Assembly: GCA_016934715.1 (NCBI GenBank)
Contig: JAFGSI010000004.1
Location: 186,001 to 250,000 of the forward strand
Source of the DNA: Anaerolineales bacterium
Lineage (GTDB): Bacteria; Chloroflexota; Anaerolineae; Anaerolineales; Villigracilaceae
Reading direction: 5' to 3'
Length of the DNA stretch: 64,000 nt
Notes under the pieces: model-generated
Databases searched by the model: none
Seen by the model: the letters and a program-made list of their open reading frames with translations, nothing else
Told to the model about the DNA's origin: nothing
Position numbers and translations under genes: made by a program
Shown: one piece after another, positions 15,956 through 30,398 of the stretch
How positions within the stretch are numbered: position 1 is the first letter of the stretch
How the letters are laid out: each line of letters starts with the position of its first letter

Positions 15956-16555
15956 TCAATCTTTCCCCGCCCGGAAGGTGACCCGCACCCCGCCCTTCTC
16001 GGCCTTGCCGAACTCGATCACGTCGCCGTCCTGCAGGACCTGCGGCTGGCGTGGCAAGAGGCGCTGGCCGTTGACGAAGGTCCCGTTGGTGCTGGCCTCG
16101 TCCTGCAGGAGGTAATCGCTGCCCGTGCGGGTGATCAGGGAGTGGCGGCGGGAGGTGTACTTGCGCAGGTCAATCGAGCTGAGGTCCACCTCGGGGATGA
16201 TCTGGCTCTTGGGGTCACTGCGCCCGACCCACAGGGAGCTCTCCTCCAGCAGGAGCACTTTCCCTGAGTCGAGCTTCAAGAACGCCGCTCCCGACCCGGC
16301 CGGTTCTTCGGTCTGGGCGCTGACCTGCAGCAGCAGCGTTGCCCCGCACAGGATGCCCATGTCGGACAGGGTGGCGTTGGGCGGCAGGCGGTGCAGACCA
16401 TCCGGGGTGCGCTGAACGAGGGCGTGCTGCCCCTCGGGCTGGTCAAGGGCCCGGGCAAGGGCGATCGCCAGCAGGCGGGTGCTGACCGTGATCGGGACGG
16501 CCAGGTCACGGCGTTTGTGCTGTTCGTATTCGAGGGTGATTACGGCCTGTTCCAT
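15956..16555 (-). CDS. YukD/EsaB-like ubiquitin fold fused to an FHA domain
   Basis: 199 residues. Residues 1-80 look like the ubiquitin-like YukD/EsaB protein of type VII secretion (AVITLEY, ALARALDQPEGQHALVQRTPDG, LPPNATLSDMGILCGATLLLQV). Residues 92-195 are an FHA domain with the phosphothreonine-binding set: LWVGRSD, Y.SRRHSLI, DEASTNGTFVNG and LQDGDVIEFG. In Firmicutes EsaB is separate and FHA domains sit on the EssC motor; here the FHA is joined to YukD while the motor has none. Last gene of the operon, 6 bases after a WXG100 gene. It probably reads kinase signals from the neighbouring Ser/Thr kinases. Confidence 0.85.
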   Translation of the reverse strand: MEQAVITLEYEQHKRRDLAVPITVSTRLLAIALARALDQPEGQHALVQRTPDGLHRLPPNATLSDMGILCGATLLLQVSAQTEEPAGSGAAFLKLDSGKVLLLEESSLWVGRSDPKSQIIPEVDLSSIDLRKYTSRRHSLITRTGSDYLLQDEASTNGTFVNGQRLLPRQPQVLQDGDVIEFGKAEKGGVRVTFRAGKD

Positions 16556-16561
16556 GCGAGG

Positions 16562-16867
16562 TCACCTGTTCCTTGTAAGCTGGGCGAACTCGGCTGCCCA
16601 GCGGAAGTCCGATTCTTCCCAGCGGTCCGCCTGGCGCTGCAGGGTTGTGCCAAGCAGATGCAATTCATCTGCCTGGGTGATCAACCGCCGCAGCAGGTAT
16701 TCAAGCTCGCCGTGAAATTCTCCTGCGCTTCCTCCGATCCAGCTCATTTCCAACCGGCGGGCATGGCTCCGCATCCTGTCGAGCATGTCGAGCATGTCCA
16801 GGGTCCCCCGCTGAAGCAGGCGGCTGGTCTGGCGCAGTTCCTCGGGTTCGACGTGGATGTCAGACAT
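16562..16867 (-). CDS. WXG100-family small protein
   Basis: 101 residues, all helical, with the turn motif as WIG at 43-45 (LEMSWIGGSAGEF) between two long helices. ELEYLLRRLITQADELHLLG forms the second helix, ending YxxxD/E-like (WEESDFRWAAEF). Expected to dimerise and be exported by, or to activate, the FtsK-like ATPase of this locus. It sits between the possible EspG-like gene and the YukD-FHA gene in one operon. Confidence 0.8.
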   Translation of the reverse strand: MSDIHVEPEELRQTSRLLQRGTLDMLDMLDRMRSHARRLEMSWIGGSAGEFHGELEYLLRRLITQADELHLLGTTLQRQADRWEESDFRWAAEFAQLTRNR

Positions 16868-16884: not shown

Positions 16885-17706
16885 TCAGGCGACGAAGCTC
16901 TTCAGCAGCGTTTCAAGGGCCTTGCGGTCCAGCAGCTGGATGGAGCCCTGGGCGCTGTCATCCGCCGAGGGAAACTCGAAAGCCCAGGTGCGCTGCTGGC
17001 CTTTCAGGAGCAGCAGCATCGGCTTGGTGGATTTCTGGACGTCTTCGATCGTGTCACTGTGTTTAGTCTCCAGGCGCAGGATGGTGGCCCGGAGGGTCTG
17101 CCCGACAACATCCTCGGCCAGTTGCCCGGCCTCGGCTGCCTTCCAGCCGGCATCGACCAGCGATTGTTTGACCTGCGCCTGGTTCTGCCCTCGACTGGTG
17201 GCTTCCCCGAGCAGGGCCGGGGTGATCCTGGCCTTGATCCTGGCGGATTGTCCGCCGTGGCCCATTTCGGCGAAGACGTTTTCCAGAAAACCGGGCAGCG
17301 CCTCCAGGGGGCCGCTCTCGAGGATGTGGATGACCCCCGACTGGATCGTATGGGAGGTGAAACCGCGCCGCTTCTGGGTGTGGATCGTCGCCCCGATCTG
17401 GCCCGCCGGGCGGACCAGGCTGACCTGCAGCAGGCGGTCGTAGCGGGCCAGCGGGAAAAGGGCCTGCTCGAGGATCGGGTCGAGCACTGGCGCCCCGGCC
17501 GCCGAGATTGTGCACAGGCCGCGCGCGAGCATCGAATGGCTGGCGGTCGACAGGCGGATGTCGACTTCCTGCTGGTCCGCCTCGGGGTAGATGGCGGCCA
17601 GCACATCCCGGCCCAGTTCGGGACAGTTGATCATCCCCAGGGCCAGCGAGAGTTCTTCCAGGCCGAGGGAGAACAACTTGAGGGTGTCTTTGGACGAAGC
17701 AGTCAT
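16885..17706 (-). CDS. Conserved secretion-locus protein, possibly EspG-like
   Basis: 273 residues, no signal peptide or TM. ATG at 17706 is chosen for its AGGAG site. The pattern (LGLEELSLALGMI, LAAIYPEA, SMLARGLC, a central run LARYDRLLQVSLVRP with beta-rich repeats, then a helical C-terminus with TLRATILRLETK) recalls the alpha/beta layout of actinobacterial EspG chaperones, which bind PE/PPE-type WXG partners. The similarity is pattern-level only. Position between WXG100 genes in the secretion operon supports a role in substrate handling. Confidence 0.5.
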   Translation of the reverse strand: MTASSKDTLKLFSLGLEELSLALGMINCPELGRDVLAAIYPEADQQEVDIRLSTASHSMLARGLCTISAAGAPVLDPILEQALFPLARYDRLLQVSLVRPAGQIGATIHTQKRRGFTSHTIQSGVIHILESGPLEALPGFLENVFAEMGHGGQSARIKARITPALLGEATSRGQNQAQVKQSLVDAGWKAAEAGQLAEDVVGQTLRATILRLETKHSDTIEDVQKSTKPMLLLLKGQQRTWAFEFPSADDSAQGSIQLLDRKALETLLKSFVA

Positions 17707-17738
17707 ATCACGCTCCTGATGATTCTGTCGCACAGCGC

Positions 17739-18674
17739 TCAGAATAAGGATGAGATGCCTTTACAGATCCCGCTGAAAGCGTTCGAGGCCTGATCGCCGA
17801 CCCACTCGAGCGCGGCGCCGCCGCCCCGGACCATGGCATCCCGGGCACCGGATCGCTGCAGCAGTTCGTAGCCTGTGTCCGCCAGCCAGTTGAAGGCGAG
17901 CCCGCCGCCGTACCAGGCGGCCAGGCCGGCGCCGGCAACGACCACCGCCGGCGCACCGAGGGCGGTCACCGCACCGATGGCTACGGTTGCCGCGGCGTAC
18001 TGCACATAAGGGCTGGCGATGATCTTCCCGGCGACGAAGGCCACGTCAATGGCGGTCGCGGCGGCCCGGTCCGTACCCTGGCTGTATTGGGCAAAATTTT
18101 CAACCCCCCGGTCGGCGAGCTCCAACGCGGCCAGTCCGTACTGCAGAGGACCGGGGTGGGAATTTTTCAGCATGTGGCCGGGCAGGTTCTGGGCCTTGAT
18201 CGAGGTCAGCGAACCGGCCAGCCCGGCCTGGGATTTCATCCCCCGCGCGCCGAACAGCTTGACCTGGCCGGCGTAGGCGCTCCCACCTGCCAGGCCGCCT
18301 ATGACAAGCGCCGTCGCGAGGCCGGTGTTGGCATCATCGAGGTACCCGAGGCCACCTCCGAGCGTGCCCCAGCCGGTGCGCAGGTCGTGCCAGCGCCCGA
18401 AGGGCCGCTGGCTGTCGACCTGTTCCCACTCTTCGGCTTCCCACCCGACCCGGCGGGCCAATGTGCCGAGTTCGTGGACCTGATTCTGGAAGGCCCGCAG
18501 CCAGGCCTGCAGATCATCGAGATAGTCAGAGGCGCCGCCGCCGGTCCAGGCGAGAGACAATCGGGAGCCCGAGGCCTGCAGGTTCTGTTGCTGGGTCAGC
18601 ATATCCAGCGCCGCTCGGTCGAGCTGGCGGGCGATCTCCCGAACCTGTTCTGTATCCATGTGAAGGGTGGTCAT
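17739..18674 (-). CDS. WXG100 protein with hydrophobic C-terminal extension (candidate T7-type substrate)
   Basis: 311 residues. Residues 1-95 form a WXG100 hairpin (LSLAWTGGGASDYLDDL, WTG at 43-45). The rest is Gly/Ala-rich with several hydrophobic stretches (LATALVIGGLAGGSAYAG; IASPYVQYAAATVAIGAVTA; PAVVVAGAGLAAWYGG) that could cross or insert into a membrane. The layout is like LXG/WXG effectors with hydrophobic bodies. GAGGAACCC precedes the ATG. No immunity gene is obvious. Could be a structural membrane component instead of a toxin. Confidence 0.75.
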   Translation of the reverse strand: MTTLHMDTEQVREIARQLDRAALDMLTQQQNLQASGSRLSLAWTGGGASDYLDDLQAWLRAFQNQVHELGTLARRVGWEAEEWEQVDSQRPFGRWHDLRTGWGTLGGGLGYLDDANTGLATALVIGGLAGGSAYAGQVKLFGARGMKSQAGLAGSLTSIKAQNLPGHMLKNSHPGPLQYGLAALELADRGVENFAQYSQGTDRAAATAIDVAFVAGKIIASPYVQYAAATVAIGAVTALGAPAVVVAGAGLAAWYGGGLAFNWLADTGYELLQRSGARDAMVRGGGAALEWVGDQASNAFSGICKGISSLF

Positions 18675-18734: not shown

Positions 18735-21700
18735 CTATTTTTCTTTGCCGCAGGTCCCCATCCAGGGCGATTGCACCAGGAGGGCCTTGCCCTTGGACAC
18801 CCAGAAGCCACGACCGGGCGGCATCTCCAGCTTTCGGAAGCTCAACGGGATCTGGTAGCCAAGCCATTCCAGTTCGCTGGGATCTTTGCTGAACCCGATG
18901 CCGGTGCGGCTCTGCCTCAAGGACCGCACCAGCGGGGAGGCCTGCTGCAGGCGGATCTCATCCACCATCCCGCTGGCGATCAGGGTGTAGGCTGTGCTGC
19001 TGCCGGTCTTCAACTGGAAATTGTTGAGGGCCTGCAGAAGGGCCTCTTTGCCGGGCTCGAAGGCTGCCCCCAGGTCGTCGATCAGGATCAGCAATTTCTT
19101 CTTCGGGCTGCCTTGTTCGAAGCGGGCCGTGATCTGTTCGCACAGCTTGACCGCCTCCTCCGTGGAAGCGGCGCATTGGATCTTCTTTTCCCCCCTGGCG
19201 AACGCCACCAGGGGCGAGCGGCGCAGCGCGAGGGCGGCGATCTCCCAATCCTTGCGCTCGGCCTGCAGGATCGCCTGGGCGGCGCAGGCCAGGAAATTGC
19301 TCTTGCCGCACTGGCGTGGCCCCAGGACCAGCCAGTGCTGCAGTTCGTCGAGCAGGTCGGACGTGATCACCTGCAGGGAGTCGTGGGATTGGCCGACCAG
19401 CAGCAGAGGGCCTGCCTCAGGCTGGGAGGGCAGCTGCACCTGCTGGAGCATCTCGTCCAGAGGAATGCAGGCGGACAGGGTCTTGATCTGGAACGGCAGC
19501 GGGCCCTTCCAGCTGTCGGCCATCAACTGGCCGATCATCCGGATATCGGTGATCGTGGTGGTATTGGGCTCGGGCATGATCACCGGCTGGGCGACCTGGC
19601 ACTCGACCACCCCGCCGTCCACCCAGTAGCCGCGGCCCTCCGCCTGGGCGCTCAAGGGACCCGGAGGCCGGCCGAGGATGTCCATGAGTTCGTCCCGGCT
19701 GGCCATCTGCAGGACCAGGTGGCGGGCGATGTTGCTGGAAACCATGCGCGGCAGTTCCAGCCCGCGGTTGGTGGCGAAGATCAGGTGCAGGTTGGCCGCC
19801 TTGCCGTCGCGCGAATAGCGCGAGAAGCGGTCGGCGTGGTCGGGGTAGGTGGCCCGCAGTTCGGCAAAGTTGTTGACCACCACGAACAGGGCCGGGTCGC
19901 GGCTGCCCATTTGGGCATCCTCGAAGCTGATCGAGGTGCGGCGTTCCAATTCGGCATCCAGGTAGTTGAGCAGGCGTTCCATACGTTCCTGCTCGGGCAG
20001 GCGGATGACCGCGCCGGTGTGCGGCAGGGTCTCGAAGGCCCGCAGGCTGCCGCTGCCGTACTCCAGGATGAAGAACTGGGCTTCTTGCGGGGTGTAGGTC
20101 GAGGCCAGGGAGAGCAGGACCGTGGTCAGGGCCATGGCCTTACCCGATCCCGGGGCACCCACGATCCACAGGTGGCCGTCCTGCTGCTCGAAGTGGACCT
20201 GCAGGCGCTCCTGGCGGCAGTCACCGGGCAGGTCGACGCGCCCGAGGGTCGCCACCAGGCCACTGGCCTGCCCGCCGTTCCAGAGGCCCTCTTTCAGGGC
20301 CCGTCCAACCCGAGGCTCCTCGTTGAGCAGCGCGTCGAGGCTGAAGTCGGTCCCGAGCGGATCCAGATAGATCTGGCGGACGGCGAAGTCCTCGTCGGCC
20401 GCAGCCTCCTGCATCAGGCCGATCATGGCATCCAGCTCGGTCAGGTTCGGGCCTGCGCTGCCGGTCTTCTCCGCCTCCCGGACGGTGTGCTTGTAGAGGG
20501 TCTCGAGTTTCCCGCTCGGATCGACGGCGTAGATCTTGAATTCGTCCATGGCCTCGGAGGTCGCCGAGAGCACCAGCTGATCGGTGCGCGAGCCCTGGAA
20601 TTCGTAGACGTCTTCCTTGACCCGGATGTAGCCCCGTCCCGGGCGCTTGCTGGGCGGACGGGTGGAGTCTACGATGCGCATCTCGTCCCGTTCGGAGACC
20701 CTCAGCACGATCCGCCAGCCGATGTTGGCCAGCAGGGCATCCACGGCACCGGTCACCTTCTGGTTGGCCAGCAGCAGGTACATGCCCAGCGCCCGGCCCT
20801 GGGTCGCCAGCAGCTGCAGCACCCGCTGCATGTCGGGGAGCAGTTCCACGCCCTTGGCAAACTCATCCAGGACCAGCAGCAGGTGGGGCAGGGGCTGCTC
20901 GGGGAAGCGTTTGTTGTAGGCCCAGATATCCGAGATCTTGCCGGCCTCTTCGAAGATCCGCTTGCGGTGTTCGATCTCGCTCTCGATCGCGATCAGGGCC
21001 CGTTCGGCCAGCTCCGGGCCGAGATCCGTGACCAGGCCGACCACATGGGGCAGTTCCTTCAGTTTGCTCAGTTCGGAGGCTCCGGCCTTGAAGTCCATCA
21101 GCAGGACGTTGAGGTGGCGCGGGGAATAGTTGTAGGCCGCGCTGAGCACCAGCGACTGCAGGAAGACGCTCTTGCCGCTGCCGGTCGTGCCGATCAGGAC
21201 GGTGTGGAAGGCCTGCTTGCCGCCCAGGTCCTCCGGGCGCAGGTCTAGCCCGATCGGTTCGAGCGAATCGCGGTTGACCCGCACGCCGACCGGGAACTGG
21301 AGCATGTCGCGCGCTCCGAGCGGACGGGTCCAGCGCTGCCGGAGGGCCTCCGCGTCCAGCAGGGAGACCCCCAGCGCCTCGGAGATGCGGATGCTCTCGG
21401 GAAGGGCGGCGCCGCTCTGGACGCCGATCACCTCGTACCCGGCCAGGGTGCGGGCGACCTGTTCGCAGTCGGGTTGGCCGGCTGGTTCCGGGCTGCCGTC
21501 CAGCACACTGCTTCCGCTTTCGCCTCCCCAGGTCTCGACGTAGCGGAAGCTCTCCTCGGAGACCTCCAGGCGGGCGCGGCACTCGCGCGGACAGCCCTGC
21601 AGGCCGGCGATCAGCAGGTAGATGCCGACCTCGTGGCCGCTGGCCGCCAGCTGGGCCAGGGCCGGCAGCTGGCGGATGCCTCCGTTGTCGTCCAGGACGA

Positions 21701-22730
21701 CCACGATGGCGGGGTGTTTGGTGTATTGTTCAGGATTGACGCCGACCCGCCGGCGGTTGTATTCATCCGAGAGCCACTCCAGGCAGGCATCGATCGCTTC
21801 GGAGTGAAAGGCCAGGTGGCGCAGGGTTTCCTCGGGTTCGAAGGCCCGTAGGTGGGGAGCCCATTTCAACCACTCCCAGCGTTCGGCGGCTCCGCTCCCG
21901 TCGGCCAGCACGAACAGCTGGACATCCTGCGGAGAATGGTGGACCAGGATCTCCAGGAGCAGGCGGCGGGTCATGCCGTACAGGAAGGCTGAATTGGCAC
22001 CTGCCACGGCCAGGCTGCCGGCCGTGGCCAGGGGCAGGAGCGCCGGCAGGTTGGGGATCTCCGCGAACTTCCGGATGACCCTGGGGGGCAGCTTGATCAA
22101 TGGATCGTTCTGGTCGGCGATGCGCGGGGGGGAGACCTTGAAGGAGGCCGCTCCAGCCCGGAGCAACCCGATCCGCAGCGAGAGGAAATCGGGATCGGAT
22201 CGCCGCCGGAGCCACAGCCGCTGGCGGCGGTCAGGATCCCTGACCGCGATCCTGACCAGCCCTTCCAGCGCCGGGTACTCACGCGCAAGGATATTGCGCT
22301 GGTCCTGGACGAGGGCGGTCAGGCGGCCTTCTTCCTGCCTGAGCACCTTCCCATACTCAGCTTCCCGGGCACGGATGCTGCGGTCGTATTTCTTCTTCTG
22401 GGAGAAATAGCTTCCCAGGGTGGCCAGGGGGAAGATCAGGCTCATGAACAGCATCGGGATGCTGGTGATCGACAATGCCGCGCTGCCTGTCGCGTAGCCG
22501 ATGACCAGTGTGATCACCATCATGATCAACATCCCTGCTCCCGGCAGGATGGTCATGAACCAGTTGATGGTCGGGGGAGTGCCGGGAAGCGGCCTGGGAG
22601 CCGGCAGTTCGATCTCGTCGGCAGGAAGCTGCCAGGGCTCGCGCTGGGAAATGATAAAGCGGCGCCGGGCGCTCGCGGGAGGGCCGGGGACGCCAGGGGA
22701 GGCGTTCTTCGGTGCAGCAGACTGGGTCAT
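18735..22730 (-). CDS. FtsK/SpoIIIE-type type VII secretion ATPase (EssC/EccC-like)
   Basis: 1331 residues; motor of the WXG100 secretion system. Two TM segments at about 57-80 and 86-107, then a 400-residue linker, then three ATPase domains. Domain 1: GTTGSGKS near 520 and LLLVLDEF near 620, both intact. Domain 2: GAPGSGKA near 860 lacks the Ser/Thr after Lys, and its Walker B (VVVNNFAEL) lacks acidic residues. Domain 3: GPRQCGKS near 1139 and LLILIDDL. So domain 1 is likely the active one and domain 2 regulatory, as in EccC. No FHA domain is present, unlike Firmicutes EssC. Second gene of the leftward operon. Confidence 0.93.
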   Translation of the reverse strand: MTQSAAPKNASPGVPGPPASARRRFIISQREPWQLPADEIELPAPRPLPGTPPTINWFMTILPGAGMLIMMVITLVIGYATGSAALSITSIPMLFMSLIFPLATLGSYFSQKKKYDRSIRAREAEYGKVLRQEEGRLTALVQDQRNILAREYPALEGLVRIAVRDPDRRQRLWLRRRSDPDFLSLRIGLLRAGAASFKVSPPRIADQNDPLIKLPPRVIRKFAEIPNLPALLPLATAGSLAVAGANSAFLYGMTRRLLLEILVHHSPQDVQLFVLADGSGAAERWEWLKWAPHLRAFEPEETLRHLAFHSEAIDACLEWLSDEYNRRRVGVNPEQYTKHPAIVVVLDDNGGIRQLPALAQLAASGHEVGIYLLIAGLQGCPRECRARLEVSEESFRYVETWGGESGSSVLDGSPEPAGQPDCEQVARTLAGYEVIGVQSGAALPESIRISEALGVSLLDAEALRQRWTRPLGARDMLQFPVGVRVNRDSLEPIGLDLRPEDLGGKQAFHTVLIGTTGSGKSVFLQSLVLSAAYNYSPRHLNVLLMDFKAGASELSKLKELPHVVGLVTDLGPELAERALIAIESEIEHRKRIFEEAGKISDIWAYNKRFPEQPLPHLLLVLDEFAKGVELLPDMQRVLQLLATQGRALGMYLLLANQKVTGAVDALLANIGWRIVLRVSERDEMRIVDSTRPPSKRPGRGYIRVKEDVYEFQGSRTDQLVLSATSEAMDEFKIYAVDPSGKLETLYKHTVREAEKTGSAGPNLTELDAMIGLMQEAAADEDFAVRQIYLDPLGTDFSLDALLNEEPRVGRALKEGLWNGGQASGLVATLGRVDLPGDCRQERLQVHFEQQDGHLWIVGAPGSGKAMALTTVLLSLASTYTPQEAQFFILEYGSGSLRAFETLPHTGAVIRLPEQERMERLLNYLDAELERRTSISFEDAQMGSRDPALFVVVNNFAELRATYPDHADRFSRYSRDGKAANLHLIFATNRGLELPRMVSSNIARHLVLQMASRDELMDILGRPPGPLSAQAEGRGYWVDGGVVECQVAQPVIMPEPNTTTITDIRMIGQLMADSWKGPLPFQIKTLSACIPLDEMLQQVQLPSQPEAGPLLLVGQSHDSLQVITSDLLDELQHWLVLGPRQCGKSNFLACAAQAILQAERKDWEIAALALRRSPLVAFARGEKKIQCAASTEEAVKLCEQITARFEQGSPKKKLLILIDDLGAAFEPGKEALLQALNNFQLKTGSSTAYTLIASGMVDEIRLQQASPLVRSLRQSRTGIGFSKDPSELEWLGYQIPLSFRKLEMPPGRGFWVSKGKALLVQSPWMGTCGKEK

Positions 22731-22839: not shown

Positions 22840-23115
22840 TCAGGCCAGGCGCTGGGCCATCTGCTCCCACTCGTTGATCTCCGACTGGAGACGGGTGGAG
22901 AGATTGTTGAGCTGGTCCAGCAGCGAGTTCAGGTTGCCGCGCCAGGTTTCATATTCGTTGAAGAACTCGGTCGCCGAATTGCCCTGCCAGGCCGACTGCA
23001 ACCCGTTGACAGAACTGGTCATGCTCTGCAGCTGCGAGGTGAGTTGAGAGTGGGTATTGGTGATGTTGCCGTGCGTGCTGCGAGCGGTCTCGACTTCCAT
23101 ATGCAGTGTTGCCAT
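22840..23115 (-). CDS. WXG100 protein (EsxA-like)
   Basis: 91 residues with a canonical hairpin: LQSAWQGNSATEFFNEYETW (WQG at 45-47) and a C-terminal helix. First gene of the leftward operon directly ahead of the ATPase, as esxA is ahead of essC-type genes. The ATG at 23115 has ACGGAGGTTG upstream and a perfect promoter behind it. Likely the main secreted or structural WXG100 subunit. Confidence 0.9.
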   Translation of the reverse strand: MATLHMEVETARSTHGNITNTHSQLTSQLQSMTSSVNGLQSAWQGNSATEFFNEYETWRGNLNSLLDQLNNLSTRLQSEINEWEQMAQRLA

Positions 23116-23160
23116 GTACAACCTCCGTTAGAGTAATGTAAGGATTGGTTTCGTCAAAAT

Positions 23161-23242: not shown

Positions 23243-25165
23243 ATGGACAGTCTTGTTGGACAATCGATCGATCGTTATCACATCTTGGAACAGCTCGGTG
23301 AAGGCGGCATGGCCGTGGTCTACAAGGCCTATGACACCCGCATCGAAAATGACGTCGCGATCAAGTTCATCCGCACCGAACGCTTTACGCCCGATTCTCT
23401 GGCCCGCTCCCTCAAGCGCTTTGAACGGGAGGCCAAGGCCCTGGCCCGCCTCACCCATCCCAATATTGTCAAAGTGATGGATTACGGTGAATATGAGGGC
23501 CGGCCCTACCTGGTGATGCCTTACCTGTCCGGCGGCAGCCTGAAGAACCTGATCGAGCAGCGCGGCCGCCTGCCCTGGGCGGAAGCGATGCGCCTGCTGC
23601 TCCCGGTCGCCCGGGCCCTCGCTTATGCCCATGGGCAGGAGATCATCCACCGGGATGTCAAGCCGGCCAACATCCTGATCACCGACTCCGGCGAACCGCT
23701 GCTGACCGATTTCGGAGTGGCGAAACTGGTCGAGGAAGAAGCCACGGTTGAGCTGACCGAGACCGGCATGGTGGTGGGAACGCCCGAGTACATGGCACCG
23801 GAGCAGATCGCCGGTCATTCCATCGATCATCGCGTGGACATCTATGCCCTGGGGATCGTCCTCTATGAAATGATCACCGGCCGGAAACCCTATCAGGCCG
23901 ACACGCCGATGGCGGTGATGATCAAGCAGAGCGGGGAGCCTCTCCCGCGGCCGCAGAAGTTCATTCCGGACCTGCCGGAGGCGGTCGAGCGGATCCTGCT
24001 CAAGGCCCTGACCAAGCAGGTCGAAGCCCGCTTTCAGGATATGGGGACTTTCATCCGGGCCATGGAAGGCCTGTTGGGGACCAGCGCCGGCAGGCAATCC
24101 GCCTCCGCCAGGACGGCCTCTGCTCCCCGGCGCAGCCCGGTTGGGGCACCTCCGCCCGCCGGGACCACCGGAACCACCTATGCCGCCATCCCGCGACCTG
24201 CCCGGCGGTCCACTGCCTGGATCTGGTGGCTGCTGGGGATCGGCGGCGGGTTGTTCGTTCTCTGCAGCCTGCTGGTCGTGCTGGGCGTTTGGGTATGGGG
24301 CATGGGGAACCCGCTTGCCGGTCTGTTTGCCACCCCGACCCCCTGGCCGACGGCCACTCCCCAGCCGACCGCCACTCCCCAGCCGACCGCCACCCCCCGG
24401 CCGACTGCCACCCAGGCCATCAGCCTGATTGGGACCTGGGACCTGTACTTTGACTGGGACTGCGATGGTGGGGAGGCGCTTGGCACGCTCTATCTCCAGC
24501 CCGGCGGCGAATATGTGACCGCCTCCAATCTGCATGGAACCTGGGTCACCAGTGGAAGCCAGATCTGGATGACCTACGACAGTGGCACGGAGTATTTCGG
24601 CGGGATCGGGGATCGCTACATGGAAGGCGAAATGACGTCCTTCGACGGGTCCACGGGCTGCTGGTGGGCCGAATACCAGGGATCCTCCACCTCGGGCAAC
24701 ACCGGCGGAAGCACGAACAACCAGCCCGGGGATGGCCTTAATTTTTCGCTCTCGCCGAATTTCGGGGACGTAGGCCTCAGTTCGGGTTTCGTGCCGGATC
24801 CCTTCAGCGTATCGATCACCAGCGGCGGCAGCGTGGATGTCCGCTCGCTCGGCCTGGGGGACGGTTGCCTTGGACACGCCACCAGCGCGCCCGATTTCCG
24901 CCTGTTCTGGTCGGGCAGCTCCCAACGCCTGCGGATCTTCTTCGTGGCCAATGGCGGGGAAGATACAACCCTGATCGTCAACAGCGCCACCGGGCAATGG
25001 TACTGCAACGACGACTCGGGCTACTCGTATGACCCGCAGGTCGATATCTCCAACCCTCCCTCCGGGCAGTACGACATCTGGGTCGGCAGTTATTCCGCTG
25101 GCGACTATGTCCCCGGGACGCTCTATATCACCGAGCTTGATCGTCACCCCGGCAACACGCCGTAA
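23243..25165 (+). CDS. Transmembrane Ser/Thr protein kinase with beta-type sensor domain
   Basis: 640 residues. Kinase domain 1-280 is complete: GEGGMA 19-24, K41 in VAIK, HRDVKPAN at 136-143, DFG 156-158 and APE 185-187. A TM follows at about 325-352, then a TPTP/QPTA repeat linker and a large extracytoplasmic part. The last 130 residues (PDPFSVSITSGG ... WYCNDDSGYSYDP ... YDIWVGSY) form the same module that occurs three times in the protein at 56052-57587. Divergent from the WXG100 operon, so it probably phosphorylates secretion components and pairs with the YukD-FHA protein. GAGGAGAACC precedes the ATG. Confidence 0.92.
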   Translation: MDSLVGQSIDRYHILEQLGEGGMAVVYKAYDTRIENDVAIKFIRTERFTPDSLARSLKRFEREAKALARLTHPNIVKVMDYGEYEGRPYLVMPYLSGGSLKNLIEQRGRLPWAEAMRLLLPVARALAYAHGQEIIHRDVKPANILITDSGEPLLTDFGVAKLVEEEATVELTETGMVVGTPEYMAPEQIAGHSIDHRVDIYALGIVLYEMITGRKPYQADTPMAVMIKQSGEPLPRPQKFIPDLPEAVERILLKALTKQVEARFQDMGTFIRAMEGLLGTSAGRQSASARTASAPRRSPVGAPPPAGTTGTTYAAIPRPARRSTAWIWWLLGIGGGLFVLCSLLVVLGVWVWGMGNPLAGLFATPTPWPTATPQPTATPQPTATPRPTATQAISLIGTWDLYFDWDCDGGEALGTLYLQPGGEYVTASNLHGTWVTSGSQIWMTYDSGTEYFGGIGDRYMEGEMTSFDGSTGCWWAEYQGSSTSGNTGGSTNNQPGDGLNFSLSPNFGDVGLSSGFVPDPFSVSITSGGSVDVRSLGLGDGCLGHATSAPDFRLFWSGSSQRLRIFFVANGGEDTTLIVNSATGQWYCNDDSGYSYDPQVDISNPPSGQYDIWVGSYSAGDYVPGTLYITELDRHPGNTP

Positions 25166-25280: not shown

Positions 25281-26771
25281 ATGGCTGGTCTGATCGGTCA
25301 TTCGTTGGGACGCTACCAGATCCTCGAACGCCTGGGCGAGGGCGGGATGGCGACCGTCTACCGGGCTCGTGACCCGCAGGCGGAGCGGGATGTGGCGGTC
25401 AAGATCATCCGCCGGTCAGCGTTCCCCGCAGAGCAGTTTGACAGGATCCTGCACCGTTTCAGGCGTGAGGCCCGGGCCCTGCGCCGGCTTTCCCATCCCG
25501 GGATCGTGGCCATCCTCGACCACGGCGAGCATGCAGGGACGGCCTACCTGGTGCTCGAATATGTCCCCGGCGGGACGGTCAAGGACCGCCTGGACGAGCC
25601 CATGCCCTGGCAGGAGGCGGTCCGGCTGCTGCTCCCGGTGGCGCAGGCCCTGGCATACGCCCATAGCCAGGGCATCATTCACCGCGATGTCAAGCCGTCC
25701 AACATCCTGCTGAACGAGACCGGCCAGCCGCTGCTGACCGACTTTGGGATTGCCAAGCTGCTTGAGACCGAGGCAACCCAGACCCTGACCGGCACGGGGA
25801 TGGGGGTCGGCACCCCGGAGTACATGGCCCCTGAGCAGGGCCTCGGCGGGGAGATCGACTCCCGGGTGGACATCTATTCGCTGGGGATCGTTTTTTATGA
25901 GCTGGTGACCGGGCACCGGCCGTTCACGGCCGACACACCCATGGCGGTGATCGTCAAGCACATCAACACGCCGCTGCCCTCGCCGCGCCGGTTCATCCCC
26001 GAGCTGCCCGAGAAAGTGGAAGCGGTCATGCGCCAGGCGCTGGCCAAGAATCCCGCCGAGCGCTACCCGTCGATGGGCGCGTTCGCCCTGGCCCTGGAGG
26101 GGCTGCCGGGCGGGCGGAAGAGAACGGCCGCCCGGGCAGGCGGGGAGACGGGCAGGGCTCCCGAGACTTTTGGAACGCTGCACCAGGAGGACACCCGGCT
26201 CACCCGTGTGCAGGAGGCCCTGCCGGACCCCGGGGAGCCGGAGCGCGCGCCAGGCACGCCCGGCCCGGGCGGGCCGGCGCGGCGGCCCTGGTGGCCGTGG
26301 CTGCTGGGCGGCGCTTTGCTGGCCGGGCTGGGCTGCATCATGGTGGCGGCCCTGGTGGGCGGCAGCCTGATGCTGCCGCGCTCCGCTTCCCGGCCCACCG
26401 CGGCCCGCCCGGGCGTTCCGACCGCCACCTCCACCACCGCCTCCCGCCCGACCGCCACCCGTTCCGGCGGGAATACGACCACTGCCCAGACGACCTGTCC
26501 GGGCGCGCCGCCGCAGCGCATCGAGGTCGGCGATCACATCTACGTCTGCACGCAGAGTGACACGGTGGCGATGCGCTCCGGGCCGGGCCGCGCCTTTGCG
26601 ATCATCCACCGCATGCAGCCGGATGCCGAGTTCGAGGTCATCGGCGGTCCGGAGTGCGGCGATGACTGGACCTGGTGGGAGGTGCGTTCGACGACCAGCG
26701 GCTACACCGGCTGGATGGCCGAGGGCGGCGACTCGGTCGACCCCTACTTCCTGTGTCCGGGATATCCGTAG
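25281..26771 (+). CDS. Transmembrane Ser/Thr protein kinase with SH3-like extracytoplasmic domain
   Basis: 496 residues. Kinase domain 1-275 with GEGGMA 19-24, VAVK to K41, HRDVKPSN near 134, DFG near 154 and APEQ near 184. TM at about 338-362 (LLGGALLAGLGCIMVAALVGG), then a Thr/Pro/Arg linker. The C-terminal domain from about 405 (YVCTQSDTVAMRSGPGRAFAII, WWEVRSTTSGYTGWMAEG) is a bacterial SH3 domain, usually cell-wall binding. It may sense wall state. Same N-terminal layout as the kinase upstream (tandem duplication) but a different sensor. A terminator separates the two genes. Confidence 0.93.
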   Translation: MAGLIGHSLGRYQILERLGEGGMATVYRARDPQAERDVAVKIIRRSAFPAEQFDRILHRFRREARALRRLSHPGIVAILDHGEHAGTAYLVLEYVPGGTVKDRLDEPMPWQEAVRLLLPVAQALAYAHSQGIIHRDVKPSNILLNETGQPLLTDFGIAKLLETEATQTLTGTGMGVGTPEYMAPEQGLGGEIDSRVDIYSLGIVFYELVTGHRPFTADTPMAVIVKHINTPLPSPRRFIPELPEKVEAVMRQALAKNPAERYPSMGAFALALEGLPGGRKRTAARAGGETGRAPETFGTLHQEDTRLTRVQEALPDPGEPERAPGTPGPGGPARRPWWPWLLGGALLAGLGCIMVAALVGGSLMLPRSASRPTAARPGVPTATSTTASRPTATRSGGNTTTAQTTCPGAPPQRIEVGDHIYVCTQSDTVAMRSGPGRAFAIIHRMQPDAEFEVIGGPECGDDWTWWEVRSTTSGYTGWMAEGGDSVDPYFLCPGYP

Positions 26772-27241: not shown

Positions 27242-28027
27242 ATGAATACACTTCACATGGATACAGCGACACTGACGGAATTGTATGGCTACATCAACAA
27301 TTGGCTGATGGAAACCCGGACCGCTGTCGATGTCCTGAAAAGGGACAGCGGCGTTCTGCCCGACTATTGGGAGGATGCGCAGGGCGAACGCGCCGGGCGG
27401 GCCCTCCAGGAGAATGTCCGACACCTGGAAGGCCTGCTGGCCGCCGTGGAGACCCTCAATCAGCGCATGTGGCGGGAGATCGATGAATGGCTGCTGGCCG
27501 ACGGGATGGGGCAGCGCGACTTCCGAGGAATTGCGGCTGCTTCCATCCTGGGCGAGCCACCCCGGCCTGCCCCGCCGCGTGAAACAGAATTGGCGTATTA
27601 TGACCGTCCGGATGATGATGGCGGTGGTTTCTGGGGCGCCCTCAAGAGCGTTACCGTGGACCCGTTGATCAGCGCGGCAAAAGCCACCGGGGGGTTTGTG
27701 AACCAGTATGTCATCGAACCGATCGATGATTTCGTGGTTGAGCCGATCGCGGATGGGCTGCGTGGGCTCATCACGCCGGCCAGTGCCAGTCCTCAGGCGG
27801 TCAGGAACAGCCCCGGAGCAAGGAACGCCCCCCTGCCTCCCGGGGCGGATCCGGGGATCCGGATCATCAACCGGGACGACATCCTCAACCGGGATGACAT
27901 CCTCAACCGGGATGACATCCTCAACCGGGATGACATCATCAACCGGGATGACATCATCAACCGGGATGACATCATCAACCGCGATGACATTATCAACCGC
28001 GATGACATCATCAACCGCGATGATTGA
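27242..28027 (+). CDS. WXG-like protein with C-terminal NRDDI(I/L) hexapeptide repeats
   Basis: 261 residues. Residues 1-95 have the two-helix WXG100 layout, but the turn reads YWEDAQGE, so the motif is altered. A middle region (SVTVDPLISAAKATGGFVNQY, VIEPIDDFVVEPIADGL) resembles linkers of secreted toxins. The C-terminus is nine perfect six-residue repeats (I-I/L-N-R-D-D) up to the stop, giving an alternating acid/base, Asn-rich tail of unknown fold; Asp-rich repeats could bind cations. AGGATCCC precedes the ATG. Candidate secreted surface protein. Confidence 0.75.
   Translation: MNTLHMDTATLTELYGYINNWLMETRTAVDVLKRDSGVLPDYWEDAQGERAGRALQENVRHLEGLLAAVETLNQRMWREIDEWLLADGMGQRDFRGIAAASILGEPPRPAPPRETELAYYDRPDDDGGGFWGALKSVTVDPLISAAKATGGFVNQYVIEPIDDFVVEPIADGLRGLITPASASPQAVRNSPGARNAPLPPGADPGIRIINRDDILNRDDILNRDDILNRDDIINRDDIINRDDIINRDDIINRDDIINRDD
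27863..28024 (+). repeat. 18-nt tandem repeat, nine copies, in frame
   Basis: Unit ATCMTCAACCGSGAYGAC encodes I(I/L)NRDD. The first copies use CTC (Leu) and GGG, the last use CGC and GAT, so variants are grouped in order, as expected from stepwise tandem duplication. Ends exactly at the stop codon. Confidence 0.97.
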
Positions 28028-28967: not shown

Positions 28968-29162
28968 CATCCGGTCGCCCTCCAATCCTTGCCCAATCTT
29001 AAAAACTGCTGCGATGTCCAGAGATCCCCTCGCCTCCGAACATGCCCGTCCCATCGCCCGGTCCGGGCAGCCATATCTGCTGGACTTGAGGCCTGCCCTG
29101 GATCGCGCACTCTTCCTGGATCAACAGGGGTCCTGTCGCTTCCGCGAAGCGAGGAGGCACTG

Positions 29163-30398
29163 ATGCCTGCGCTTCACATGGATCCCGAGCAGGTCCGCCA
29201 GGCGGCTGAGCAGCTGGAGCAATTTGCCGGCCTGATCTACGAGGGCAGCCAGGCCCTGCAGCGGCGGCTGGCCCGCCTGGACTGGCAGGGCGGCGGCAGT
29301 GCCGATTTCACGGTCCGCCTTCAGCAGGTGGTCCGCGGGCTGCGCCAGCAGGCCGAAGAGGCCCGGACCTTCAGCCAGCGCATCCGGCGCGAGGTCGATG
29401 AGTGGCAGGCGACAGATTCGGCCGGACCCGGCCACCCGACTTCACGGTTCGGGTTCGGCCCGCAGCTGGCCGCGGCCGGGGGCGGAGTTGCCCTGGTGGG
29501 CAGCGTGCTGGGCGCTTCGACGTCCGCCGGGGAGGCCTATCATGATGCGATCCGGGGGATGTCCTGGAAAGACCGCTTCCTGGAAGAACAGCGCCTGGAT
29601 GCGGCGCGGGCGGCTTCCCGGGCCCACCTGGATGCAATGCAGGACGAGGCCGAAATCCACTCCCGGCTCGAGGATCTCGATGCCCGGATTGCCGACCTGG
29701 AGCGCCGGCGGGCCGGGGCCCAATCCAGGGCGGATGCCTGGTACAACCGGATCCGGCCGGATTGGGACAAGGAGCACCGGCCTTTTCCCGGGGATGGGGA
29801 CGGCCTTCCCTGGCGGACCGAATCCGATGATTATGAGGACCAGGTGTCGCAGTTGGACATCGAACTGCAGGCCCTGCGGTCCGAACGCCAGAACCTGCAG
29901 GCCGAGCTGGATGCCTGCCGGCAGGAACAGGCCAACCTGGCCGAATTACAGGCCCGCCAGTCCGCGCTGGAGGGGGTGATCGCCCCGGGAATCCCGGAGG
30001 ATGGGCCGTCGGCGAGACACCCCTATTTTCCAGGGACCGACTCCACCAACTGCACACGCTATGCGGCTCGCCACCGCAACGTTCCCTGCAGCGGGAATGC
30101 CCATCAGTGGAATGACCAGGCCGCCGCCGCCGGATACGAGACCGGCAATCGCCCGGTCCCCGGCAGCGTGCTGGTGATCGAGCCCGATCCGACCGGCCGC
30201 CAGAGCCATGCGACCCATGGTCATGTGGCGATCGTGGACGGCGTGGATGACCTGGGCGGCGGCAGTTACAACGTGCACATCCGCGAGGGCGGCTGGAACG
30301 GGGGCTACAGTGAGCGCAGCCTGACCATCCATACCAGCGGGGCTTCGGCCGATGTCCGGGGGGTGCCGGTCAGTTTCATATACGATCAGCAGCGGTAG
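29163..30398 (+). CDS. WXG100-coiled-coil-CHAP protein, putative secreted peptidoglycan hydrolase
   Basis: 411 residues. Residues 1-95: WXG100 hairpin (LARLDWQGGGSADFTV). Residues about 150-280: long charged coiled coil (EAEIHSRLEDLDARIADLERRRA; QLDIELQALRSERQNLQAELDA). Residues about 290-411: CHAP domain with catalytic Cys in DSTNCTRYAARH near 298, and His in HATHGHVAIVDGV near 357. CHAP enzymes cut peptidoglycan peptide bonds. WXG fusion marks it as a substrate of the type VII system, either to open the wall for secretion or as an antibacterial effector. ATG 29163 with GAGGAGGC upstream. No immunity gene follows. Confidence 0.88.
   Translation: MPALHMDPEQVRQAAEQLEQFAGLIYEGSQALQRRLARLDWQGGGSADFTVRLQQVVRGLRQQAEEARTFSQRIRREVDEWQATDSAGPGHPTSRFGFGPQLAAAGGGVALVGSVLGASTSAGEAYHDAIRGMSWKDRFLEEQRLDAARAASRAHLDAMQDEAEIHSRLEDLDARIADLERRRAGAQSRADAWYNRIRPDWDKEHRPFPGDGDGLPWRTESDDYEDQVSQLDIELQALRSERQNLQAELDACRQEQANLAELQARQSALEGVIAPGIPEDGPSARHPYFPGTDSTNCTRYAARHRNVPCSGNAHQWNDQAAAAGYETGNRPVPGSVLVIEPDPTGRQSHATHGHVAIVDGVDDLGGGSYNVHIREGGWNGGYSERSLTIHTSGASADVRGVPVSFIYDQQR

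What the first reader, a model, noticed from the sequence alone, without database searches (positions are those of the whole stretch)
15956..16555. YukD-FHA fusion protein
A single 199-residue protein joins the ubiquitin-like EsaB/YukD domain with a complete FHA domain (GR, S, NG residues kept). It links phosphothreonine binding directly to a type VII regulator.
Basis: partly seen in the sequence, partly recalled or inferred. Interest (0 to 1): 0.5.

Follow-up and report, generated by a model that had tools for sequence, protein, structure and literature searches.

The report
Secretion subunit fused to phosphothreonine reader
A bacterial secretion machine of the type VII kind carries its small ubiquitin-like subunit fused to a domain that normally binds phosphorylated threonine, next to two membrane kinases, which suggests that phosphorylation helps to assemble or switch on the machine.

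Summary
Confirmed. The 199-residue minus-strand protein at 15956-16555 joins an N-terminal YukD/EsaB ubiquitin-like domain to a C-terminal FHA domain with its phosphothreonine-site motifs kept. It is not an isolated oddity: 21 such fusions, including this one, were extracted from genomes of the same order, with 13 invariant columns, eight in the canonical FHA motifs. The gene ends a tight type VII secretion operon: ATPase without FHA domains, long WXG protein, EspG-like chaperone (by fold), WXG100 protein, YukD-FHA. Two membrane Ser/Thr kinases lie divergently upstream. Elsewhere in the phylum the FHA half is decayed or absent. PP2C genes lie near 8 of 14 fusion loci and 0 of 17 stand-alone ones.

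Most likely it is a phospho-dependent adaptor: YukD docks on the secretion ATPase, FHA on a phosphothreonine, plausibly the neighbouring kinase's activation loop. Binding is untested. The nearest described system is T7SSc of Bacillota, whose YukD is a discrete protein. No paper found describes the fusion. New variant of a known kind.

The parts
15956..16555 (-). YukD-FHA fusion protein, 199 aa; last gene of the T7SS operon
16316..16555 (-). YukD/EsaB ubiquitin-like domain (about residues 1-80)
   Evidence: Pfam residues 12-76; model elements in 3-78; weak profile hit to EccD1
15971..16279 (-). FHA domain (about residues 93-195) with motifs GR, SRxH, NGT, NG
   Evidence: match to solved FHA domains, first two rows Z 16.4, rmsd 1.9 and 1.4 over 97 and 96 residues
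16562..16867 (-). WXG100 protein, 101 aa
   Evidence: PF06013 33.2 bits, cut-off 27.3
16885..17733 (-). EspG-like chaperone, 282 aa, no Pfam match by sequence
   Evidence: AF2 model pLDDT 77; Foldseek ranks 1-3 are EspG; 14 EspG rows Z 8.7-11.0, next unrelated row 4.8
17739..18674 (-). long WXG protein, 311 aa, hydrophobic stretch about residues 227-254
   Evidence: PF06013 26.4 bits, just below cut-off 27.3
18735..22730 (-). EccC/EssC-type ATPase, 1331 aa, hydrophobic stretch from residue 55, no FHA match
   Evidence: TIGR03928 520.5 bits, below its cut-off 778.4; PF01580
22840..23121 (-). WXG100 protein, 93 aa, upstream of the ATPase gene
   Evidence: PF06013 51 bits
23243..25165 (+). membrane Ser/Thr kinase 1, 640 aa, hydrophobic stretch about 325-361, T-x-T in activation loop
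25281..26771 (+). membrane Ser/Thr kinase 2, 496 aa, hydrophobic stretch about 338-366, C-terminal SH3-like match (25 bits, below cut-off 27)

Best explanation
The protein is the YukD/EsaB subunit of a Chloroflexota type VII secretion system, turned into a phospho-dependent adaptor. The ubiquitin-like half docks on the EccC/EssC-type ATPase, as the EccD ubiquitin-like domain does in mycobacterial ESX. The FHA half binds a phosphothreonine made by a neighbouring membrane Hanks-type kinase, most plausibly the phosphorylated T-x-T activation loop of the kinase itself (as GarA does on PknB) or a substrate of it. Binding would tether kinase and ATPase, so that an outside signal sensed by the kinase's outer part sets assembly or activity of the secretion machine; a PP2C phosphatase, where present, would reverse it. 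Shown: the fusion, its conservation, kept FHA motifs, T7SS operon, kinase neighbourhood, no FHA on the ATPase. Inferred: docking on the ATPase, phosphothreonine binding, identity of the target, effect on secretion. Because the ubiquitin-like domain runs on into the FHA domain, it has no free C-terminus for conjugation.
For: Pfam YukD and FHA in one ORF, family of 21. Thirteen invariant columns in the 21, eight of them in the canonical FHA motifs (that these are the phosphothreonine contacts is recalled). A kinase within 9 kb in 14 of 14 fusion loci with at least 9 kb of flank, against 9 of 17 loci with stand-alone YukD (Fisher p 0.0035); PP2C in 8 of 14 against 0 of 17 (p 4e-4). A catalytic-loop pattern HxDxxPxN in 24 of 29 kinase ORFs at fusion loci, at least one in 12 of 14 loci. 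T-x-T activation loop in 15 of 29 kinase ORFs at fusion loci (21 with a readable loop), 0 of 13 (6 readable) at stand-alone and 0 of 4 (3 readable) at decayed-FHA loci. No FHA on any of 8 ATPases tested from fusion loci. Literature: EccD ubiquitin-like domain contacts EccC (PMC11217815, passages); [quoted passage not shown] PknQ-MupFHA (PMC4238996, passages).
Against: No binding data. The kinase and phosphatase profiles were built from fusion-locus proteins, which favours finding them there, and the loci are related, so the p-values are indicative only. Two of the 14 fusion loci (L146, L147) show no catalytic-loop pattern in any kinase-like ORF. The four long-linker fusions have no detected kinase within 9 kb. 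No PP2C was found in the window. YukD did not bind the ATPase in a B. subtilis two-hybrid test (PMC9600267). In one other family of the phylum the FHA half has decayed, so a constitutive docking role is possible there.
Confidence: 0.55

Rival explanations
1. The FHA half is a phosphorylation-independent docking module, structural glue of the secretion machine like the FHA domains of EssC on EssB in T7SSb; phosphorylation plays no part.
For: T7SSb YukB FHA domains bind the YukC pseudokinase, apparently without phosphorylation (PMC9600267, passages). In family f36 the domain is kept but the NGT motif is lost. Kinase-like ORFs at L146 and L147 lack the catalytic-loop pattern.
Against: In the fusion class eight FHA-motif residues are invariant across 21 divergent proteins, which structural docking alone would not demand, and 12 of 14 loci have a kinase with the catalytic-loop pattern.
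Confidence: 0.25
2. The FHA half reads phosphothreonine on a WXG or EspG-bound substrate or on the ATPase, so that phosphorylation marks cargo or ATPase rather than tethering the kinase.
For: WXG100, EspG-like and long WXG genes sit directly beside the fusion gene in the window.
Against: No conserved phosphorylation site was looked for in them; docking on kinase activation loops has published precedent. The EspG-like gene was detected in only 5 of the 16 other short-linker loci, in L143 in pieces.
Confidence: 0.13
3. The fusion is a kinase-signalling or ubiquitin-like-pathway protein that merely lies near a T7SS.
For: The same genome carries a separate YukD-E2/JAB cassette.
Against: An ATPase gene or its fragment is within 9 kb in 16 of 17 short-linker loci (not L147), and WXG matches in 11 of the 16 other short-linker loci. 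Of the four long-linker loci two have the ATPase within 9 kb.
Confidence: 0.04

Closest known systems
YukD/EsaB of T7SSb (Bacillus subtilis, Staphylococcus aureus)
   Same: Ubiquitin-like domain, Pfam PF08817, encoded beside the FtsK-like ATPase and WXG100 genes
   Different: There YukD is a discrete small protein and the FHA domains sit on the ATPase, with phosphate-binding residues lost (PMC9600267, PMC10765036, passages); here FHA is on YukD with the motifs kept and the ATPase has none
EccD of T7SSa (mycobacterial ESX)
   Same: YukD-like domain fused to another domain; first row, though weak, among solved structures (4kv2)
   Different: EccD's partner is a multi-spanning membrane domain, here a soluble FHA domain
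T7SSc of Bacillota (TscA-TscG, Garrett et al. 2024, PMC11217815; passages and one section)
   Same: ATPase without FHA, WXG100, YukD-like protein, EspG-like chaperone, membrane kinase; PP2C at 8 of 14 fusion loci and a vWA protein at one
   Different: TscB is a discrete YukD-like protein; here it carries FHA. No PP2C found in the window. The vWA protein of L069 also carries FHA
FHA component TsxJ of T7SSe and T7SSf
   Same: A T7SS with a separate FHA protein and, in T7SSe, kinase and phosphatase genes
   Different: TsxJ joins FHA to DUF6382, not to YukD (PMC11217815, passages)
GarA/PknB and MupFHA/PknQ of mycobacteria
   Same: FHA protein that docks on a Hanks-type kinase activation loop; the FHA model matches GarA among solved structures
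   Different: No ubiquitin-like domain and no secretion system

Membership tests
YukD/EsaB (PF08817) | profile match over curated cut-off | tested here: met
   27.9 bits vs 27; 19 of 21 members match at E <= 0.01
YukD/EsaB (PF08817) | beside FtsK-like T7SS ATPase and WXG100 genes | tested here: met
   window:
YukD/EsaB (PF08817) | ubiquitin-like beta-grasp fold | tested here: inconclusive
   secondary structure of the model fits, but FHA filled the fold-search lists and the N-terminal part was not searched alone
YukD/EsaB (PF08817) | no free C-terminal Gly-Gly | tested here: met
   the domain runs on into linker and FHA
FHA (PF00498) | profile match over curated cut-off | tested here: met
   62.1 bits vs 20.7
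FHA (PF00498) | phosphothreonine-site motifs | tested here: met
   G111 R112 S135 R136 H138 G158 T159 N162 invariant in 21 of 21
FHA (PF00498) | binds phosphothreonine | not testable with these tools
   needs a binding assay
[quoted passage not shown]
   no FHA match in 8 of 8 ATPases of fusion loci; in the window 54 residues precede the first hydrophobic stretch
T7SSb | EssB, EssA, EsaA | not tested
   not sought
T7SSc | ATPase without FHA | tested here: met
T7SSc | EspG-like TscG | tested here: met
   by fold for the window; found by sequence in 5 of the 16 other short-linker loci
T7SSc | membrane Ser/Thr kinase TscD with conserved active site | tested here: met
   window kinases
T7SSc | discrete YukD-like TscB | tested here: not met
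   YukD is fused to FHA; hence said to work like T7SSc, not filed as T7SSc
T7SSc | PP2C phosphatase TscF in the cluster | tested here: not met
   no hit among window ORFs of 60 aa or more (rest of the genome not searched); present at 8 of 14 fusion loci
T7SSc | vWA protein TscE | not tested
   not sought in the window; one vWA-FHA protein seen in L069

The most novel reading that the evidence does not exclude
Probability: 0.4. Interest if true: 0.65.

Novelty: new variant of a known kind. Interest (0 to 1): 0.5.

Why it matters
The role of EsaB/YukD in type VII secretion is called unclear although it is essential in T7SSb, and phospho-control of T7SS is proposed from kinases, phosphatases and FHA proteins near the clusters (PMC11217815, passages). 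A fusion puts the two on one chain and makes both testable: what the FHA half binds tells what YukD is meant to sit next to. The three states (intact FHA, decayed FHA, none) beside the same kind of ATPase are a natural comparison set.

Tried and rejected
Chance or frameshift fusion: rejected, 21 members. FHA moved from ATPase to YukD within this phylum: not supported as a simple swap, since no FHA was found on the ATPase in loci with stand-alone or decayed YukD either (0 of 10 N-termini: eight stand-alone, two decayed). Single origin of the fusion: not settled. On a quick ATPase tree of 39 rows (14 short-linker, 2 long-linker, 7 decayed, 16 stand-alone) the 14 fall into two sets, the deepest forks are weak and long branches meet. 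Fold search with the whole fusion model lists FHA chains in the rows shown; no YukD chain appears there, which is no evidence against it. The second structure job went to the EspG-like protein. A phylum scan with the full-length alignment is swamped by FHA-only hits: among listed rows only the window and G017 match over the full length. Of the 32 stretches fetched from the phylum scan, 8 (L074, L077, L080, L172, L175-L178) were put in no class and left out of the counts. Whether the fusion exists outside Chloroflexota was not settled. My first catalytic-motif pattern for kinases was too strict (17 of 29) and was rechecked with a looser one (24 of 29).

Full report
What is there. The window holds a compact minus-strand operon whose last gene is the one reported: 15956-16555, 199 aa, ATG. 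Residues 12-76 match YukD (27.9 bits, cut-off 27) and residues 110-183 match FHA (62.1 bits, cut-off 20.7). Upstream in the same direction are a WXG100 protein (16562-16867), a 282-aa protein without Pfam match (16885-17733), a long WXG protein (17739-18674), the EccC/EssC-type ATPase (18735-22730) and another WXG100 protein (22840-23121). Divergently follow two Ser/Thr kinases, 23243-25165 and 25281-26771, each with one hydrophobic segment between the kinase domain and a C-terminal part, and with catalytic motifs intact as read from the sequence. NCBIfam names the ATPase only below its cut-offs (520.5 bits against 778.4 for EssC, 376.1 against 509.15 for EccCa, 315.9 against 346.55 for EccCb), so it is a relative, not a standard EssC or EccC.

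The 282-aa protein is EspG-like. An AlphaFold2 model from five homologues (pLDDT 77, pTM 0.73) has EspG3 and EspG1 chains as its first three Foldseek hits (E 1.7e-4, 1.8e-4, 9.7e-3). In the structural realignment 14 EspG entries score Z 8.7-11.0 (rmsd 5.3-6.4 over 200-226 residues, 9-14% identity) and the next unrelated row 4.8. The rmsd is large, so the fold class is shown rather than the detail. By sequence this gene was found in 5 of the 16 other short-linker fusion loci (L064, L065, L142, L144 and, in pieces, L143), so it is not a constant partner.

The fusion is a family. A scan of 61 genomes (own and relatives) with the whole protein showed near full-length matches in three other genomes; a fourth was recognised on reading the ORF. 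A scan of 400 genomes of the order with a YukD-only alignment matched 36 genomes at 39 places. I extracted 23 of the 39: 21 are YukD-FHA (17 with a short linker, window included; 4 with about 40-60 residues between the domains), one is YukD plus kinase (L156), one YukD plus E2 (L158). The other 16 places were not extracted; 14 of them are open frames under 150 residues. Pfam finds FHA in 21 of 21 and YukD in 19 of 21. Thirteen columns are invariant: P21 L93 G111 R112 D124 S135 R136 H138 G158 T159 N162 D178 G183. That eight of these are phosphothreonine-site motif positions is recalled knowledge of FHA domains. The two nearest same-genus genomes had no match to the YukD-only alignment.

Three states in one phylum. 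A scan of 400 genomes of the phylum with Pfam YukD matched 66; I fetched 32 stretches from it. Seventeen are class S: YukD ORFs of 109-215 aa without an FHA match, with an ATPase ORF in the stretch. Seven are class P: YukD proteins of 216-245 aa near the ATPase, from six genomes of one family (code f36). They align with the fusion family over 188 columns (hhalign probability 97.5, E 5.9e-12), but the NGT motif is replaced and the SRxH motif altered, and my FHA profile matches them only weakly, 16.7-26.5 bits: a decayed FHA domain. Eight stretches were left unclassed. No FHA match was found on any of 8 ATPases from fusion loci (the window, where 25 of 29 families are displayed; six short-linker and one long-linker locus), nor on 10 control ATPase N-termini (eight S, two P). 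On a quick ATPase tree of 39 rows the seven P rows form one supported set, 15 of 16 S rows another and 11 F rows a third with full support; three F rows and the two long-linker rows lie elsewhere and the deepest forks are weak.

Neighbourhood test. With one set of profiles over all loci, a kinase lies within 9 kb of the fusion gene in 14 of 14 F loci with at least 9 kb of flank in all (three of 17 F loci dropped for short contigs: L064, L066, L141) and in 9 of 17 S loci (Fisher p 0.0035). PP2C: 8 of 14 against 0 of 17 (p 4e-4). The kinase and phosphatase profiles were built from F-locus proteins and the loci are related, so these numbers lean towards the hypothesis. Against it: the four long-linker fusions have no detected kinase within 9 kb, and P loci, with decayed FHA, have one in 4 of 7. 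A catalytic-loop pattern (HxDxxPxN) is present in 24 of 29 kinase ORFs at F loci, 6 of 13 at S loci and 4 of 4 at P loci; some ORFs are fragments; two of 14 F loci (L146, L147) have none. A T-x-T activation loop is present in 15 of 29 kinase ORFs at F loci (21 with a readable loop), 0 of 13 at S loci (6 readable) and 0 of 4 at P loci (3 readable). Kinase 2 of the window lies beyond the 9 kb cut and is not in these counts; its loop, read, also holds T-x-T.

Mechanism. [quoted passage not shown] T7SSb YukB/EssC FHA domains lack conserved phosphate-binding residues and dock on the YukC/EssB pseudokinase (PMC9600267; PMC10765036). A 2026 paper cites a cryo-EM core complex of YukC, YukB and YukD (PMC13037476, passages); the cited work did not come up in the library. 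The most economical reading is an adaptor: YukD on the ATPase, FHA on a phosphothreonine of the neighbouring kinase or its substrate. Docking of FHA proteins on kinase activation loops has precedent in GarA/PknB (a title in a reference list) and PknQ/MupFHA. Each docking step here is inference.

What is known and what is new. YukD fused to a 12-helix membrane domain in actinobacteria was described in 2006 (PMC1779556, passages). Searches for YukD+FHA, type VII+Chloroflexi+EccC, YukD+Chloroflex, EsaB+forkhead-associated+type VII, WXG100+Chloroflexota+FHA, type VII+Anaerolineae, ubiquitin-like+FHA domain+WXG100 and YukB+YukC+YukD+cryo-EM returned no paper whose title, displayed abstract or passages I read describe a YukD-FHA fusion. 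I read passages of all five papers holding both YukD and FHA; most other hits were seen only as listings, and subscription papers and preprints are not in the library. The system works like T7SSc (ATPase without FHA, EspG-like protein, membrane kinase, at some loci PP2C and a vWA protein), but is not filed as T7SSc because its YukD is not discrete and no PP2C was found in the window.

Noticed in passing
L067 6635-12012 (same genome, contig C58): A separate ubiquitin-like cassette: E1/ThiF-like protein with a GntR-like N-terminus, zinc-finger-like membrane protein, YukD-E2 fusion (Pfam YukD and UQ_con), stand-alone YukD-like 88-aa protein, JAB protein and an FHA-like membrane protein. The E1, zinc-finger, FHA and membrane labels were read by eye.
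   Followed up: partly
L156 9663-12326: 887-aa protein with a weak YukD match (17.9 bits, below cut-off 27), a Ser/Thr kinase domain, a membrane segment (by eye) and a periplasmic binding domain: possibly YukD fused to a receptor kinase.
   Followed up: partly
L069 8574-10541: 655-aa protein with vWA (24.4 bits, cut-off 27) and FHA matches directly behind a YukD-FHA gene, followed by kinase and PP2C genes; recalls TscE of T7SSc with an added FHA.
   Followed up: partly
window 27242-28027: WXG-like protein (by eye) whose C-terminus is nine six-residue repeats of the form (I/L)NRDDI, the last one incomplete.
   Followed up: no
window 28989-30398: Protein with a WXG100 match (23.3 bits, cut-off 27.3) and a CHAP peptidase domain, a possible secreted substrate of the system.
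   Followed up: no
L143 9331-9839: Long-WXG and EspG-like genes appear broken beside an intact YukD-FHA gene.
   Followed up: no
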